A stretch of 64,000 bases of DNA. Origin: Streptococcus suis 10581. GTDB lineage: Bacteria > Bacillota > Bacilli > Lactobacillales > Streptococcaceae. Shown piece by piece: positions 48,821-53,092 of the stretch. Positions within the stretch are counted from its first letter, which is position 1; the number at the start of each line of letters is the position of its first letter. The DNA lies in contig ALKQ01000017.1 of the NCBI GenBank assembly GCA_000440235.1, positions 19,363-83,362 on the forward strand, in the 5' to 3' direction. The position numbers and the translations under genes were made by a program. Under the pieces are notes generated by a model, which saw only the letters and a program-made list of their open reading frames with translations, ran no database searches and was not told the origin of the DNA.

Positions 48821-49082
48821 GGCCTACTTGTATGTCTTGGAATGTGCCGACGGGAGTCTATATACTGGTTATACGACTGATGTGGAGAAACGGCTTGCTA
48901 CCCATAATCGTGGAAAAGGGGCCAAGTACACCCGCGCACGCTTGCCTGTCAGCCTGCTCTATCAGGAAGCCTTTGCCAGCAAGCAGGAAGCCATGTCTGC
49001 CGAGGCTTTGTTTAAGAAACGCAGTCGGCAGAGTAAATTAGATTATATTGCAGAAATGACAAAAAAACCTCGCTCCACATAG
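48810..49082 (+). CDS. GIY-YIG domain protein (YazA/UPF0213 family)
   Basis: 90 aa from ATG 48810, overlapping the methyltransferase; a longer frame lies inside that gene. [46 protein letters not shown] is the single GIY-YIG nuclease fold (here AYLYV...LYTGYTTD), with the catalytic Arg in EKRLATH. These short stand-alone proteins have no settled biological role; DNA repair or RNA processing is suspected. Confidence 0.88.
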
Positions 49083-49096
49083 GGCGAGGTTTTGAC
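49062..49096. terminator. Bidirectional terminator between GIY-YIG gene and azoR
   Basis: AAAACCTCGC (49065-49074) pairs with GCGAGGTTTT (49085-49094), flanked by A and T runs. The left arm is inside the last GIY-YIG codons. Confidence 0.85.
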
Positions 49097-49708
49097 TTAA
49101 AATGTCTCCAAAATCGTATCAATCTTGGTCATTGCCTCAGCATAGATAGCTTCAGCCTGGCTTGGATCGGCAGATTGCCCTTCGATAAAGACCTGGTGAA
49201 GGTCTTCAAAGCCTAAAAATTCAAAGATAGACTTGATGTACTGGGCAGCTGGATCTTGACCTGCATAAACACCACCATTGGACTGGATGTGCAGGAGCTT
49301 TTTGTCCTTGACCAAGCCGATAGAGCCTTCTGGACCATACTTAAAGGTCAGGCCTGCTACATTGATGGTATTGACCCAAGATACCAACTGACTTGGCACA
49401 TTGAGATTCCAGAGAGGATTGACGACGACAATCTTATCAGCTGCAAGAAATTGCTGGGTCAAGGCATTATAGCGGTCCAACTGCTCTGCTTGTTCAGGAC
49501 TGATTTCTATACCTTTTTTAACCGCTCCCATAGATTCTAACAAAGGCTTATCCAAAGCTGGAATCTGGTCTTCAAAGACATCCACTACTTCTATCTTATC
49601 CTCTGGGTGCAAACTGGCGTAACGAGTTTGAAACTCTTCCAAGGCTCGCAAGGCGTAGGACTTTTGTGCATCGAGGGGGTGGGCCTTTACAATTAATAGA
49701 GTTGCCAT
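49097..49708 (-). CDS. azoR: FMN-dependent NAD(P)H azoreductase/quinone reductase
   Basis: 203 aa flavodoxin-like protein. N terminus MATLLIVKAHPLDAQKSYALRALEEF binds the FMN phosphate. NPLWNLNVPSQLVSWVNTINVAGLTFKYGPEGSIG (about 97-131) is the AzoR core, and LHIQSNGGVY (about 139-148) contacts FMN. Likely protects against quinones and electrophiles; azo-dye reduction is a side activity. Single-gene unit. Confidence 0.92.
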   Translation of the reverse strand: MATLLIVKAHPLDAQKSYALRALEEFQTRYASLHPEDKIEVVDVFEDQIPALDKPLLESMGAVKKGIEISPEQAEQLDRYNALTQQFLAADKIVVVNPLWNLNVPSQLVSWVNTINVAGLTFKYGPEGSIGLVKDKKLLHIQSNGGVYAGQDPAAQYIKSIFEFLGFEDLHQVFIEGQSADPSQAEAIYAEAMTKIDTILETF

Positions 49709-49787
49709 TGTTTTGCCCCTTTTATCACTAGTTATTGATAGTTGTATTATACTATTTTTGATTTATAATTCAAATCATTTGCTCGAA

Positions 49788-49812
49788 GCAAAAGGCTGGT
49801 CTCCCAGCCTCT
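49788..49812 (-). terminator. Terminator after the GNAT gene at 49.8 kb
   Basis: On the minus strand AGGCTGG-GAGA-CCAGCCT is followed by TTTGC. Compact stem with a short T run. Confidence 0.65.
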
Positions 49813-49830
49813 CCCTTTCTAAATTGTTCC

Positions 49831-50238
49831 TTATTTTAAATAAGTATAAGCAACACAGTCCAAGCTTTCAACAGCTGTAAAGCCAAGTTCCTCATAAAAA
49901 GACCGTGTTTTCTCAGTATTGTCCGTCAAGAGATGAAGCTGATAAATACCCGGAAAGTGGGTAACGGCCTGCTCCAAAAGATGACGCCCAATCCCTTGTC
50001 GCTGATAGGTTGGTAGGACCAAGATGTCCTGAATAAAAACGATTGAATAGCCGTCACCAACTGCTCGCAAGAGACCCACTAGACGGTCACTGTCAAAGGC
50101 AGCGAGAACCAGTAGGCTATGTTCCAAGGACTTCTCTAACATTTCTGGACGGCTGGTATATCCTGTCCAGTCCACAGAAGCATAGAGGTCTAGGACTGCT
50201 TGAAAATCAAGTTGAGGATTTTGTTTGTAAGTAATCAT
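49831..50238 (-). CDS. GNAT N-acetyltransferase under leader-peptide control
   Basis: 135 aa from ATG 50238 behind AAGGAGAAAGAC; a longer in-frame start lies inside the control hairpin. Complete GNAT fold: VGLLRAVGDGYSIVFIQDILVLPTYQRQGIGRHLLEQAVTHF (acetyl-CoA loop QRQGIG, about 78-83) and RSFYEELGFTAVE. Substrate unknown. Its Shine-Dalgarno is buried in a hairpin behind a 12-codon leader, an arrangement typical of ribosome-inducible antibiotic resistance genes, so acetylation of a ribosome-targeting compound is a fair hypothesis. Confidence 0.88.
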   Translation of the reverse strand: MITYKQNPQLDFQAVLDLYASVDWTGYTSRPEMLEKSLEHSLLVLAAFDSDRLVGLLRAVGDGYSIVFIQDILVLPTYQRQGIGRHLLEQAVTHFPGIYQLHLLTDNTEKTRSFYEELGFTAVESLDCVAYTYLK

Positions 50239-50244
50239 GTCTTT

Positions 50245-50274
50245 CTCCTTTGTATTTTTTTTAGAATACAAAGG
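50245..50274 (-). promoter_or_regulatory. Hairpin hiding the Shine-Dalgarno of the GNAT gene
   Basis: On the transcript CCTTTGTATT (50274-50265) and AATACAAAGG (50256-50247) pair perfectly over ten bases around an eight-base loop. The second arm contains AAGG of the Shine-Dalgarno AAGGAG (50250-50245). The first arm is the last sense codons of the leader, so a ribosome held there would open the stem. Confidence 0.75.
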
Positions 50275-50299
50275 CTTTATCCATTGTCAAAATGCCCAT
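50261..50299 (-). CDS. 12-residue leader peptide MGILTMDKAFVF
   Basis: ATG 50299 follows a strong AGGAGG seven bases upstream and reads 12 codons to TAA at 50261. The last codons form one arm of the hairpin that hides the next gene's ribosome site. TATACT on the minus strand (50332-50327) is a suitable -10 just upstream. No homologue is known to me; recognition rests on position, ribosome site and the overlapping stem. Confidence 0.7.
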   Translation of the reverse strand: MGILTMDKAFVF

Positions 50300-50337
50300 G
50301 GTCTTACCTCCTATTTTACTACTTCTAGTATAACAAA

Positions 50338-50364
50338 AACCGCTCCAATTATGAAGCGGTTTTA
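50338..50364 (-). terminator. Terminator overlapping the end of sdpI
   Basis: On the minus strand AAAACCGCT pairs with AGCGGTTTT around ten bases, then TTG. The stem includes the final sdpI codons and stop. Confidence 0.75.
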
Positions 50365-50948
50365 AAATGCAGATAAGCATAATAGATACTAAGACTTACA
50401 ACAGAAATACCAACCAATATCATTACAAGGATAGATAGAGTTGGTGAACCCAACAAACTTACTAACTGCAACAACCCACCAATCATCAAGAGATAGCCTG
50501 ACTGCTTTCTTCCCTTTCGTTCTATTTCGTTGATCTTGCTATCCAATTCCTCTTTGGGTAAATAATTCCCTATCACCATATAATATACAGCCAGCAGTCC
50601 AATGACAAGCCTCCGATAATCCAGTTCTCCTCCTAAATTATACCAGAGTAAAGAAACTTGAATGATGAGAGCCAGTAGCGGAAAAAGCCATTTGACCACT
50701 CGAATGACTGGTGTTTTCCCTATCCCTTTCACATCATAAAGTACACAAATGAATAGGTGAACACAAAAAAATGATAGCGGTGTCAAAATCATCATATACT
50801 TGGCCATAGAGCCATTTGGCTCACCATTTACGCCAAAATGTGTCACCAGGGTATCTGGCAATGCTTTATAGTAATAAATCATCAATACAGCTATTAGTAG
50901 AAATATACTAGAAGTTGCTAATAATGTTTTTATGTCAATTTTCTTCAT
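50349..50948 (-). CDS. sdpI: SdpI-family membrane protein (immunity/sensor)
   Basis: 199 aa from ATG 50948 (GAGGGCAACAAG upstream), overlapping sdpR by 14 bases. Five or six helices. The N-terminal part carries the DUF1648-like LPDTLVTHFGVNGEPNGSMAKY (about 31-52), and the C-terminal SdpI part contains GNYLPKEELDS. In Bacillus, SdpI protects against the SDP toxin and also captures SdpR at the membrane. No SdpC-like toxin gene was found nearby. Confidence 0.88.
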   Translation of the reverse strand: MKKIDIKTLLATSSIFLLIAVLMIYYYKALPDTLVTHFGVNGEPNGSMAKYMMILTPLSFFCVHLFICVLYDVKGIGKTPVIRVVKWLFPLLALIIQVSLLWYNLGGELDYRRLVIGLLAVYYMVIGNYLPKEELDSKINEIERKGRKQSGYLLMIGGLLQLVSLLGSPTLSILVMILVGISVVSLSIYYAYLHFKTAS

Positions 50949-51213
50949 CTTGTTGCCCTCCAAAACTTGCAATCCAAACCAAGACTTCTTCAAAGACCGT
51001 ATAGTTTAGACGATAATAAATAAAATTTTTCTGCTTTTCCTCCAAGATTAATCCAGCTTTTTTCAAAGTGGATAAATGATGAGAAACTGTTGCTCCTGTT
51101 AATTGAAATTGTTCTACAATTTCCCCAGCAGACTTCGGCCCCGACTTAAGACTATCTAGAATTTGCCTACGAATAGGAGCAGAAATTGCCTTCAAAGTTT
51201 CAGAAAGCCCCAT
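50935..51213 (-). CDS. sdpR: ArsR-family autorepressor SdpR
   Basis: 92 aa winged helix-turn-helix. MGLSETLKAISAPIRRQILDSLKSGPKSAGEIVEQFQLTGATVSHHLSTLKKAGLI is the SdpR/ArsR fold, with the recognition helix around residues 38-52. No metal-binding Cys pair is present, matching the SdpR branch rather than metal sensors. The overlap with sdpI and its position after an ABC exporter suggest one operon answering a membrane-active peptide. Confidence 0.9.
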   Translation of the reverse strand: MGLSETLKAISAPIRRQILDSLKSGPKSAGEIVEQFQLTGATVSHHLSTLKKAGLILEEKQKNFIYYRLNYTVFEEVLVWIASFGGQQDEEN

Positions 51214-51249
51214 ACTATCATTTCCTCCTTCTTTCTAGTAGCAATTACT

Positions 51250-51267
51250 CTTCAATAAAACTTGAAG
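51250..51267. promoter_or_regulatory. Small palindrome upstream of sdpR
   Basis: CTTCAA-N6-TTGAAG in the 80-base gap between the ABC permease and sdpR. It could be a weak terminator or an SdpR operator. Confidence 0.35.
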
Positions 51268-51293
51268 CCTATATTTCTTTAGTTTAATCATTA

Positions 51294-52103
51294 TTAATTA
51301 TTCAAAATAAATTTTTCAAAATTAAATCTCTTAACGACAACAATAAACGTCACAATTACTACGAACAGTAAGATGGATATGAAAACAATCGTTTCAAAAA
51401 TTCCTAATATTAAAACTCCTGACGATTGGGATATCAACATCCCTAAAATCGGAAACACTATTATCATCGCAATTCCTTGTGCAGATTTGCTATTTTTGAA
51501 ATATTGTGAACTTCCAATAATGAGCAGAATTGACAATAAAATAAGCAATGGGGAAATGACGAAAACTACTAACAACCAAGTAAGATTCGGTAAGATAATA
51601 TGCCCAAAGTTGCTCCAACCTAATATATTAACCATCGTTGAATAGATGATAACTGACGTAATCGTTACTAAAAATGCTGGTATTGCGCATGCAAGAGCCT
51701 TACCCAAAATTAAGTTCTTAGGAGATAAGGGAGTATATAACAACCCCTCCATGGTCTTGTTCTCCTTCTCACCAATAAGACTACTTACTGCCAATATGGA
51801 AGAAGCCATGATTGGAACCAACATGAATAACGGTAAAAAGAAATAGGTAAAAATAGCATAATATGGTACATTTGCAGAAGTCACATAGCTTGGATACTTC
51901 AAAATTTGAAAGTGTTCTAAAAAATCACTTAATCCAGCAATACTAGTGGTGACACCTCCATTAGCACCAAAGACCAATATCAGAGAGGGAAGCAATATGC
52001 TAATAATGATCGGAGGAAGGAACAGACTCAATAACAATCCCTTATCTTTTAGTAACTCAATTAAATCTTTTTTAACAATTACTTTAATTTGATAGCTCTT
52101 CAT
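51294..52103 (-). CDS. ABC-2 type exporter permease
   Basis: 269 aa from ATG 52103 (GGAGGTACTCATC upstream), overlapping the ATPase gene by 20 bases. N-terminal cytoplasmic helix (MKSYQIKVIVKKDLIELLKDKG), then six hydrophobic segments. The ABC-2 motif GEKENKTMEGLLYTPLSPKNLILGKAL (about 110-137) is the NatB-like coupling region. Probably exports a peptide, drug or ion with its ATPase. Confidence 0.85.
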   Translation of the reverse strand: MKSYQIKVIVKKDLIELLKDKGLLLSLFLPPIIISILLPSLILVFGANGGVTTSIAGLSDFLEHFQILKYPSYVTSANVPYYAIFTYFFLPLFMLVPIMASSILAVSSLIGEKENKTMEGLLYTPLSPKNLILGKALACAIPAFLVTITSVIIYSTMVNILGWSNFGHIILPNLTWLLVVFVISPLLILLSILLIIGSSQYFKNSKSAQGIAMIIVFPILGMLISQSSGVLILGIFETIVFISILLFVVIVTFIVVVKRFNFEKFILNN

Positions 52104-53007
52104 GATGAGTACCTCCAACAATTCTAAAGTATATATCTTTTAAAGATTCGGTTTCCTGATGAATACCGTAAATAGCATTTTCTTTAACTGATAATTTTTT
52201 TACAATTTCTGGAATATTGTCAAGTCTATCTACCTTAATATGGAACTCAGTATTCGAACATTTCAATATAGCCCCAAGATAGGACAGTTCTTCCAAGTCA
52301 TTTGGATGAAAATGTCCTTGAAATTGAACTATTTTTTCTGTTTTTTGAAGTGCATCTAAGTCACCACTTTGCAAGATACAACCGTTTTTTAGGATACCTA
52401 TACTATCTACCACTCCATCCATTCCATAAAGATAGTGAGTGCACATAATAATTGTAATACCTTCTTTTTTCAACTGTTTGATAAAACTATAAAATTCATC
52501 AATGGCCTCTGGATCCAAACCGGTCGTAGGTTCATCCAATATCAATACTTCTGGATTATGCAACATAGCTCTAGCGAGCATAACTTTTTGTCTGTTCCCT
52601 TTACTAAGACTCCCTATAACCATGTCTAGATACTGTTCTAACCGAAATAACTTTTTTAAAATACTTATTCTAGAGTCAATCTGACTATTGTCCATACCAT
52701 AAATTTCTCCCCAAATAGCCAGGTTCTCCTGAACAGTTAGGTTTTCGTAGAGATTGCCATCATTTTGAACACCAATACGTTGCAACAACTCTGTTCTGGA
52801 ATTTTCCGTCAGTATCATATCAAATAGTTTAACCGTTCCCTTATCAGGGTGTAATAACCCTAAAATAATTCGAATTAATGTCGTTTTTCCAGCACCATTT
52901 GGCCCAAGTAATGCAAAGACCTGACCTCGCTCAATTTTTATAGAAACATTATTAATGATACTTTTTGAACCAATTGTTTTCTGAATTCCATTTACTTCAA
53001 CAACCAT
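52084..53007 (-). CDS. ABC exporter ATPase, first gene of the sdp-linked operon
   Basis: 307 aa from ATG 53007 (AGGAGGGAATAAA upstream). Walker A GPNGAGKTT (about 38-46), signature LSKGNRQKVMLARAM (about 134, with SKGN in place of SGGQ as in drug-exporter ATPases), Walker B VLILDEPTTGLDP (about 156), H-loop IIMCTHYLYGM. A C-terminal extension of about 90 residues is typical of antibiotic/bacteriocin exporters. Transcribed from a consensus promoter with a palindromic operator; permease, sdpR and sdpI follow. Confidence 0.9.
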   Translation of the reverse strand: MVVEVNGIQKTIGSKSIINNVSIKIERGQVFALLGPNGAGKTTLIRIILGLLHPDKGTVKLFDMILTENSRTELLQRIGVQNDGNLYENLTVQENLAIWGEIYGMDNSQIDSRISILKKLFRLEQYLDMVIGSLSKGNRQKVMLARAMLHNPEVLILDEPTTGLDPEAIDEFYSFIKQLKKEGITIIMCTHYLYGMDGVVDSIGILKNGCILQSGDLDALQKTEKIVQFQGHFHPNDLEELSYLGAILKCSNTEFHIKVDRLDNIPEIVKKLSVKENAIYGIHQETESLKDIYFRIVGGTHHEELSN

Positions 53008-53092
53008 TTTATTCCCTCCTATACCTATAAGACCCATGAGAAATGAAGCATGCTCATGAAGAGAATTGAGATAGTAAAAAATTCATCGTCAG

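What the first reader, a model, noticed from the sequence alone, without database searches (positions are those of the whole stretch)
50238..50332. Leader peptide plus Shine-Dalgarno-hiding hairpin in front of a GNAT acetyltransferase
Seen: a -10 (TATACT), a strong AGGAGG, a 12-codon ORF (MGILTMDKAFVF), then a perfect 10-bp stem whose first arm is the last leader codons and whose second arm contains AAGG of the acetyltransferase ribosome site. Known: erm and cat leaders use ribosome stalling in a short ORF to open such stems. Inferred: this acetyltransferase is induced by a compound that stalls ribosomes, or by shortage of a specific aminoacyl-tRNA, and may modify that compound. I know of no description of this locus.
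Basis: partly seen in the sequence, partly recalled or inferred. Interest (0 to 1): 0.72.

Follow-up and report, generated by a model that had tools for sequence, protein, structure and literature searches.

The report
Drug-sensing leader peptide before acetyltransferase gene
In front of an acetyltransferase gene, Streptococcus suis carries a tiny gene plus an RNA hairpin that looks like a switch which turns the enzyme on when an antibiotic of the erythromycin type jams the ribosome; some relatives of the enzyme in gut bacteria carry other switches of the same kind, so the enzyme may belong to an undescribed antibiotic response.

Summary
On the minus strand: extended -10, AGGAGG, a 12-codon ORF (MGILTMDKAFVF), and a perfect 10-bp stem pairing leader codons 9-12 with AAGG of the GNAT ribosome site. 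It is not chance: the leader core occurs once, at this gene, in 18 of 20 close genomes. Codons 2-8 show a synonymous excess (26:16, carried by codons 2, 4 and 7), codon 9 does not (1:7).

Two comparisons suggest the signal. (1) The homologous leader in S. cuniculi and S. acidominimus, MGIRNLDKASSL, matches the ErmBL arrest core (MRNVDKTSTV) in register: 0 of 3000 shuffles, post hoc; the S. suis form alone does not. (2) Clostridial relatives of this GNAT carry leaders beginning MRLR, a known macrolide arrest sequence: 12 of 200 loci against 0 of 632 other genes (partly ascertained).

Best reading: a translational attenuator in which a tunnel-binding drug, probably a macrolide, stalls ribosomes on the leader and switches on the acetyltransferase. 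Nothing was tested at the bench; substrate and protection are unknown. New variant of the erm/cat-type attenuator.

The parts
50336..50363 (-). terminator-like hairpin AAAACCGCT..AGCGGTTTT of the upstream gene, overlapping the promoter
   Evidence: by eye, folded (plus strand); not flagged by the scan; absent upstream of some relatives (e.g. L012, L015-L017), so not part of the switch
50327..50335 (-). extended -10 promoter element TG-T-TATACT; transcript probably starts about 50320 (inferred)
   Evidence: TGnTATACT in 13 of 14 aligned rows, TGTTATATT in L020
50307..50312 (-). Shine-Dalgarno AGGAGG of the leader ORF
   Evidence: GGAGG invariant in the 14-row alignment
50261..50299 (-). leader ORF MGILTMDKAFVF*
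   Evidence: synonymous excess in codons 2-8; core pattern once per genome
50279..50281 (-). Asp7 codon, proposed P-site codon of the arrested ribosome (Lys8 in A site, 50276-50278)
   Evidence: inferred from the ErmBL register, the codon-wise event counts and stem spacing; Met6 in the P site also fits the spacing
50265..50274 (-). 5' arm of the stem, CCTTTGTATT (leader codons 9-12)
50247..50256 (-). 3' arm of the stem, AATACAAAGG, overlapping the GNAT SD
50245..50250 (-). Shine-Dalgarno AAGGAG of the GNAT gene
49831..50238 (-). GNAT acetyltransferase, 135 aa (P0001)
   Evidence: Pfam PF13508 E 1.4e-13, PF00583 E 5.3e-13; PDB 2atr E 8.2e-39
49793..49810 (-). terminator-like hairpin AGGCTGGgagaCCAGCCT + T4 after the GNAT gene; gene probably monocistronic
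   Evidence: by eye from the sequence; not flagged by the scan

Best explanation
A translational attenuator. Without drug, ribosomes read and leave the 12-codon leader, the stem re-forms and partly hides the GNAT SD (shown: sequence and predicted fold; inferred: regulation). When a drug sits in the peptide exit tunnel, most likely a macrolide, the nascent chain MGILTMD stalls the ribosome with Asp7 in the P site and Lys8 in the A site (inferred). That ribosome covers codons 9-12, the 5' arm, so the SD is freed and the acetyltransferase is made (inferred). The signal peptide is of the ErmBL class in this clade and of the RLR class in some clostridial relatives (shown as sequence for the RN-type and MRLR leaders, inferred for the S. 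suis form and for function). The enzyme probably protects against the inducing drug or a related ribosome-targeting compound (inference, weak).
For: Leader codons 2-8: 26 synonymous vs 16 nonsynonymous parsimony events over 30 loci (expected synonymous 19%, p 1e-9; frames +1 14:42, +2 3:52); codon 9 gives 1:7. Codons 10-12 are invariant as nucleotides in the 13 distinct S. suis-type leaders. RN-type leader MGIRNLDKASSL matches ErmBL 6-15 with R, N, V/L, D, K at -3, -2, -1, P and A; score 30, 0 of 3000 shuffles, and it alone reaches that score among 2882 short-ORF peptides of the loci. ErmBL needs R7 and V9-K11; at its P site Asp > Glu > Gly and ours varies D/E/N; Arg in the A site works better than Lys and L011 has DR; Leu at -3, as in S. 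suis, made ErmBL arrest erythromycin-selective. XDK is a listed erythromycin arrest motif. MRLR leaders: 5 of 80 loci fetched without regard to leaders, 12 of 200 overall vs 0 of 632 control genes. SD-hiding architecture 30 of 200 vs 0 of 632. Stem starts 8-11 nt after the presumed P-site codon in 9 of 10 MRLR loci measured; here 7 nt if Asp7, 10 nt if Met6 is in the P site (and arithmetic).
Against: No experiment. The S. suis-type leader alone is not significantly like ErmBL (1638 of 3000 shuffles as good); other RN-type forms match less well (MGIRNLEKGSSF 3 of 3000, MGIRNLDTACSF 64 of 3000), and ErmBL was chosen for comparison after the likeness was noticed. DK is not kept in 9 of 30 leaders (DR, EK, NK, DT, DI). 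The synonymous excess rests on codons 2, 4 and 7 (23 of 26 events); codon 8 is 0:3 and codon 3 is 2:4. No covariation in the S. suis stem. SD hiding is only partial here (0.38 unpaired, against 0.47 median without leader). The fold is not clearly better than shuffles in RN-type L049 (37 of 200), MRLR L074 (41 of 200) and L223 (10 of 200). The leader is absent in 7 of the first 30 and 39 of a further 40 Streptococcus loci read, so the enzyme does not need it. Two sub-MIC macrolide proteome papers on S. suis do not mention an acetyltransferase in their main text.
Confidence: 0.7

Rival explanations
1. Same attenuator, but the physiological signal is another stall-causing compound: a phenicol, lincosamide, pleuromutilin or a peptide antibiotic of competitors, or several classes as for E. 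coli toiL.
For: toiL in front of topAI-yjhQ responds to at least five antibiotics that are thought to stall at different codons. Phenicols and oxazolidinones favour Ala, and phenicols also Ser/Thr, at the penultimate residue, and Thr5 and Ala9 are present.
Against: Thr5 changes to Ala or Asn and Ala9 to Thr, Val, Asp or Gly across relatives, whereas position 7 stays Asp, Glu or Asn. MRLR in relatives is a known macrolide arrest sequence.
Confidence: 0.16
2. Constitutive translational coupling: the leader merely lets terminating ribosomes open the stem and hand over to the GNAT start; no inducer.
For: The stop codon lies beside the stem loop, 22 nt before the GNAT ATG, so a terminating ribosome would also open the stem; simple and needs no drug.
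Against: Coupling does not explain amino-acid selection in codons 2-8, the ErmBL-register match of the RN-type leader or MRLR leaders in relatives.
Confidence: 0.09
3. Metabolite- or starvation-sensing leader (polyamine or amino acid, or shortage of one tRNA) controlling a small-molecule acetyltransferase.
For: Polyamines and amino acids stall some regulatory leaders, as noted for toiL; GNATs include polyamine acetyltransferases (recalled).
Against: No run of one codon in the leader; two unlike leader classes in the GNAT family both match known macrolide arrest motifs.
Confidence: 0.05

Closest known systems
ermB attenuator with ErmBL leader
   Same: Arrest register R-N-V/L-D-K in the homologous RN-type leader; short SD-preceded leader, stem over the downstream initiation site
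   Different: Downstream gene is a GNAT, not a 23S rRNA methyltransferase; leader is 12 codons, not 27; one simple stem instead of ermB's alternative helices; S. suis form has L-T-M-D-K
ErmDL / RLR-class macrolide leaders
   Same: 12 of 200 GNAT loci, clostridial, have leaders beginning MRLR, most with an SD-hiding stem
   Different: The S. suis leader itself has no +X+ motif
cat-86-type phenicol attenuator (recalled)
   Same: Single stem whose 5' arm lies in the leader and which hides the SD of an acetyltransferase gene
   Different: GNAT is unrelated to chloramphenicol acetyltransferase; different leader peptide; inducer not shown
toiL uORF of E. coli topAI-yjhQ (PMC12121999)
   Same: Antibiotic-sensing uORF whose ORF pairs with the downstream SD; the operon includes yjhQ, a GNAT-type protein by recall
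   Different: First gene is a toxin; unrelated leader and host; no orthology tested

Membership tests
erm/cat-type translational attenuator | short translated leader ORF with its own SD | tested here: met
   AGGAGG and ORF present; synonymous excess points to selection as a peptide; no ribosome footprint data
erm/cat-type translational attenuator | stem formed with leader sequence that hides the SD of the next gene | tested here: met
   10 bp covering AAGG; 30 of 200 GNAT loci vs 0 of 632 control genes; only partial hiding here
erm/cat-type translational attenuator | no transcription terminator in the leader (translational, not transcriptional) | tested here: met
   3' arm is followed by AGAAAGACATG, no T run; the scan of 49000-51500 found no minus-strand terminator-like site, but it also missed two hairpins that I call terminator-like by eye
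erm/cat-type translational attenuator | drug-dependent ribosome arrest at a defined leader codon | not testable with these tools
   needs toeprinting
erm/cat-type translational attenuator | downstream product gives resistance to the inducer | not testable with these tools
   GNAT substrate unknown; 0 of 9 NCBIfam matches reach the cut-off
ErmBL arrest peptides | R(-3), V(-1), D(P site), K(A site) core | tested here: inconclusive
   RN-type MGIRNLDKASSL matches (0 of 3000 shuffles), MGIRNLEKGSSF 3, MGIRNLDTACSF 64 of 3000; S. suis-type keeps D-K and has Leu at -3, not significant by itself (1638 of 3000)
RLR-class leaders | Arg-Leu-Arg near the leader start | tested here: not met
   absent in the window leader; present in 12 of 200 GNAT loci, in clostridial genomes
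GNAT superfamily | acetyl-CoA-binding GNAT domain | tested here: met
   PF13508, PF00583, PF13673 above gathering scores; close solved relative 2atr
Known Rfam leader families | covariance-model match | tested here: not met
   0 matches in the whole window at gathering thresholds

The most novel reading that the evidence does not exclude
This GNAT subfamily is an undescribed intrinsic response to exit-tunnel antibiotics: in Streptococcus and in several clostridial lineages it has separately acquired drug-sensing leaders (ErmBL-like, MRLR, MVKLR) with unrelated stems, and its product acetylates a macrolide-like or other tunnel/PTC drug or repairs its effect.
Probability: 0.3. Interest if true: 0.85.

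Novelty: new variant of a known kind. Interest (0 to 1): 0.66.

Why it matters
Antibiotic-sensing leaders normally mark genes linked to drug resistance (stated for uORFs in PMC12121999). Finding two unlike macrolide-type leader classes on relatives of one uncharacterised acetyltransferase points to an unrecognised drug-inducible enzyme in a pig and human pathogen and in gut Clostridia, and makes its inducer and substrate directly testable. The -3 position (Arg in sister species, Leu in S. suis) also offers a natural test of how leaders tune drug specificity.

Tried and rejected
Compensatory changes in the S. suis-type stem: looked for, none. Transcription attenuation: no T run after the stem. 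A known RNA family: none. Leader elsewhere in the genome: a first pattern was mis-spaced by me and found nothing even at the known site; the corrected one, exact matches only, found one site per genome in 18 of 20 genomes, each beside the GNAT. Leader in most other streptococci: not found in 39 of 40 further loci. GNAT on phages: no match. GNAT relatives on plasmids (37.6-43.8% identity in the 12 of 92 records listed): of three opened none has the MGI or MRLR leader, but Lactococcus L239 has an SD-preceded GTG ORF MDKLWIDYSI* with an 8-bp stem next to its SD. Crude counting of distinct codons gave no peptide selection in the S. suis-type set (2 syn, 10 nonsyn); the event count on a tree did, because synonymous codons toggle repeatedly; recombination could inflate that count, and the test ignores transition bias. 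The leader groups compared are not phylogenetically independent. Literature: searches, in the held open PMC library only and mostly with capped listings, showed no description of this locus or of an MRLR/ErmBL-like leader before a GNAT; subscription papers and preprints are not covered.

Full report
What is there. The gene lies on the minus strand. Reading 5' to 3': an extended -10 (TG-T-TATACT, 50335-50327), AGGAGG (50312-50307), a 12-codon ORF (50299-50261, MGILTMDKAFVF), a perfect 10-bp stem CCTTTGTATT/AATACAAAGG (50274-50265 with 50256-50247), AAGGAG (50250-50245) and the GNAT ATG at 50238. The stem's 5' arm is nucleotides 26-35 of the ORF; its 3' arm takes in AAGG of the SD. The fold has z -2.18, 6 of 200 shuffles as good. 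The gene ends at 49831 and a terminator-like hairpin follows (by eye), so it is probably transcribed alone. The window lies in S. suis or a near relative: the 14 closest named loci are labelled S. suis.

More than chance. A mechanical test asked for an SD-preceded ORF of 4-24 codons whose 3' part pairs by at least 7 bp (at most one G-U) with at least 3 nt of the next gene's SD. It is met at 1 of 302 start candidates in the window, this one, at 30 of 200 GNAT loci, and at 0 of 632 other genes of the fetched loci. The 200 are 202 distinct upstream regions out of 225 matching loci less two too close to a contig end. The 30 are 22 S. suis-type, 6 MRLR, L096 and L201; the 8 RN-type and 6 further MRLR loci fail, because their stems are interrupted, G-U-rich or short, overlap the SD too little, or (L223) because the gene start was mis-called.

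Distribution. 182 of 197 Streptococcus genomes have a match to the GNAT at E <= 0.001, but the leader is restricted. Of the 30 best loci, 23 carry it (L001, L003-L017, L019, L020 and the divergent L022-L026), 7 do not; of 40 further loci that I picked down the list, 1 does (L113). The other matches were not read. Among named loci, 13 of 14 labelled S. suis carry it, and S. sp. LYSM12, S. azizii, S. cuniculi and S. acidominimus carry the divergent form (several are the same genomes as). An exact pattern for the S. suis-type leader core hits once per genome, beside the GNAT, in 18 of the 20 genomes with the most similar GNAT. L018 keeps the promoter block but lacks the leader.

The peptide is selected. 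On a tree of 30 GNAT genes, leader codons 2-8 show 26 synonymous and 16 nonsynonymous events (19% synonymous expected, p 1e-9); the other two frames give 14:42 and 3:52. The excess rests on codon 2 (10:0), codon 4 (6:2) and codon 7 (7:4, only Asp, Glu and Asn); codon 3 is 2:4, codon 8 is 0:3, codon 9 is 1:7. A cruder count of distinct codons within the S. suis-type set shows no excess (2:10). In the 13 distinct S. suis-type leaders codons 10-12 do not vary even at synonymous sites. So the leader is kept as peptide up to codon 7 or 8 and as RNA from codon 9 on. That boundary lies where a ribosome with Asp7 in the P site would be reading, and such a ribosome would cover the 5' arm (footprint size recalled).

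What the leader resembles. The homologous leader in S. cuniculi and S. acidominimus, MGIRNLDKASSL, aligns without gaps to ErmBL 6-15, MRNVDKTSTV, score 30, 0 of 3000 shuffles; no other of 2882 short-ORF peptides of the loci scores as high. Related forms do less well: MGIRNLEKGSSF 3 of 3000, MGIRNLDTACSF 64 of 3000, S. suis MGILTMDKAFVF 1638 of 3000. ErmBL was compared because the likeness had been noticed, so these are post hoc figures. The register is that of the ErmBL arrest: R7, N8, V9, D10 in the P site, K11 in the A site (PMC4935803, passages and one section). Published ErmBL mutants fit the natural variation in part: Asp > Glu > Gly at the P site (PMC8274638, passages), Arg threefold better than Lys in the A site, Leu at -3 erythromycin-selective though weak in vitro (PMC6238534, passages). 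XDK is a listed erythromycin arrest motif (PMC8298421 and PMC13410324, passages). DK is exact in 21 of 30 leaders.

The enzyme's relatives have other leaders. In loci fetched only by GNAT similarity, 5 of 80 (L052, L061, L065, L067, L074) have a leader starting MRLR directly in front. Searches with the L052 protein added L187, L188, L196, L198, L221, L223 and L226; because the L052 query was chosen after its leader was seen, the total of 12 of 200 against 0 of 632 is partly ascertained. MRLR is a known short macrolide arrest sequence (PMC8298421, passages). Stems differ: TCTCCTTT/AAAGGAGA, GTTCTCTTTT/AAAGGAGAAC, TCTTCTGTCA/TGACAGGAGG, TTCTGTGACC/GGTTACAGAA. L096 has MVKLRILL with a 13-bp stem and fold z -3.41; L201 has MVKLWNALSA with an 8-bp stem. 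Folds against shuffles: L046 0 of 200, L096 0, L223 10, L049 37, L074 41. Median SD unpaired probability: MRLR 0.09 (11 loci, L223 not scored; L221 0.53), MGI-type 0.37 (30), GNATs without these leaders 0.47 (129). In the GNAT tree (174 rows, few columns, poorly resolved) the 29 MGI-type rows lie in one 31-row branch with leaderless L018 and L021, and the MRLR rows are scattered among leaderless rows; the fewest state changes are 8.

Spacing. In 9 of 10 MRLR loci measured the stem starts 8-11 nt after the first base of the Leu codon that should sit in the P site by analogy with ErmDL, in L221 15 (for L223 I moved the gene start by 15 nt). L196 and L074 gave only 4-5 bp with the method (offset 20), L096 gives 6. 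Here the figure is 7 for Asp7 or 10 for Met6 in the P site; the RN-type loci give 7-15. The exact stall codon is not settled.

The enzyme. It is a GNAT with a close solved relative, 2atr (S. pneumoniae by recall), and no named function above cut-off. Invariant residues across 40 chosen members include Y19, W24, Y27, R58, G61, D62, Q70, D71, G82, G84, Q100, T105, F114, Y115, so leader-bearing and leaderless enzymes look like one family. I could not model it. The substrate is open.

Verdict. A real, conserved short leader and stem with the anatomy of a translational attenuator of the cat/erm kind; the leader most likely ErmBL-like, the inducer most likely a macrolide or another tunnel drug. Shown: sequence, conservation, selection, resemblance of the sister leader. 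Inferred: arrest, induction, protection. Two S. suis sub-MIC macrolide papers do not mention an acetyltransferase in the main text (PMC4811924, PMC5072222, passages). Within the held library I found no description (searches listed under tried and rejected). On checking I lowered confidence from 0.72 to 0.70 because the codon-8 count does not by itself support peptide selection there.

Noticed in passing
L096:2959-3375 and upstream; L201; L167: Further short leaders before distant GNAT relatives: MVKLRILL* (13-bp SD-hiding stem), MVKLWNALSA* (8-bp stem) and MVKLRKKVSCRK* (6-bp stem); the first and last contain K-L-R, a +X+ motif.
   Followed up: partly
L018 upstream of the GNAT: Terminator-promoter block kept but the leader and stem are missing, as if deleted; a natural leaderless control.
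   Followed up: no
window 50349-53037: A membrane protein, an ArsR-like regulator and an ABC transporter (names by eye) lie between the DEAD-box helicase gene and the GNAT here, while in L003, L008, L009 and L020 the helicase end directly precedes the GNAT promoter: strain-variable insertion.
   Followed up: no
L239:1437-1500 (Lactococcus cremoris pAF12): A plasmid-borne GNAT relative (85 of 92 plasmid records with a match are Lactococcus) has its own SD-preceded GTG ORF MDKLWIDYSI* and an 8-bp stem CTATTCAA/TTGAATAG beside its SD; a short ORF annotated as bacteriocin lies upstream.
   Followed up: partly
L060 / L156 upstream: Short leader MGVLNY* with good SD before a clostridial GNAT; starts MGVL like some S. 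suis leaders but stops at codon 7.
   Followed up: no
L113 (G115): RN-type leader intact but the GNAT reading frame contains one TAA.
   Followed up: no
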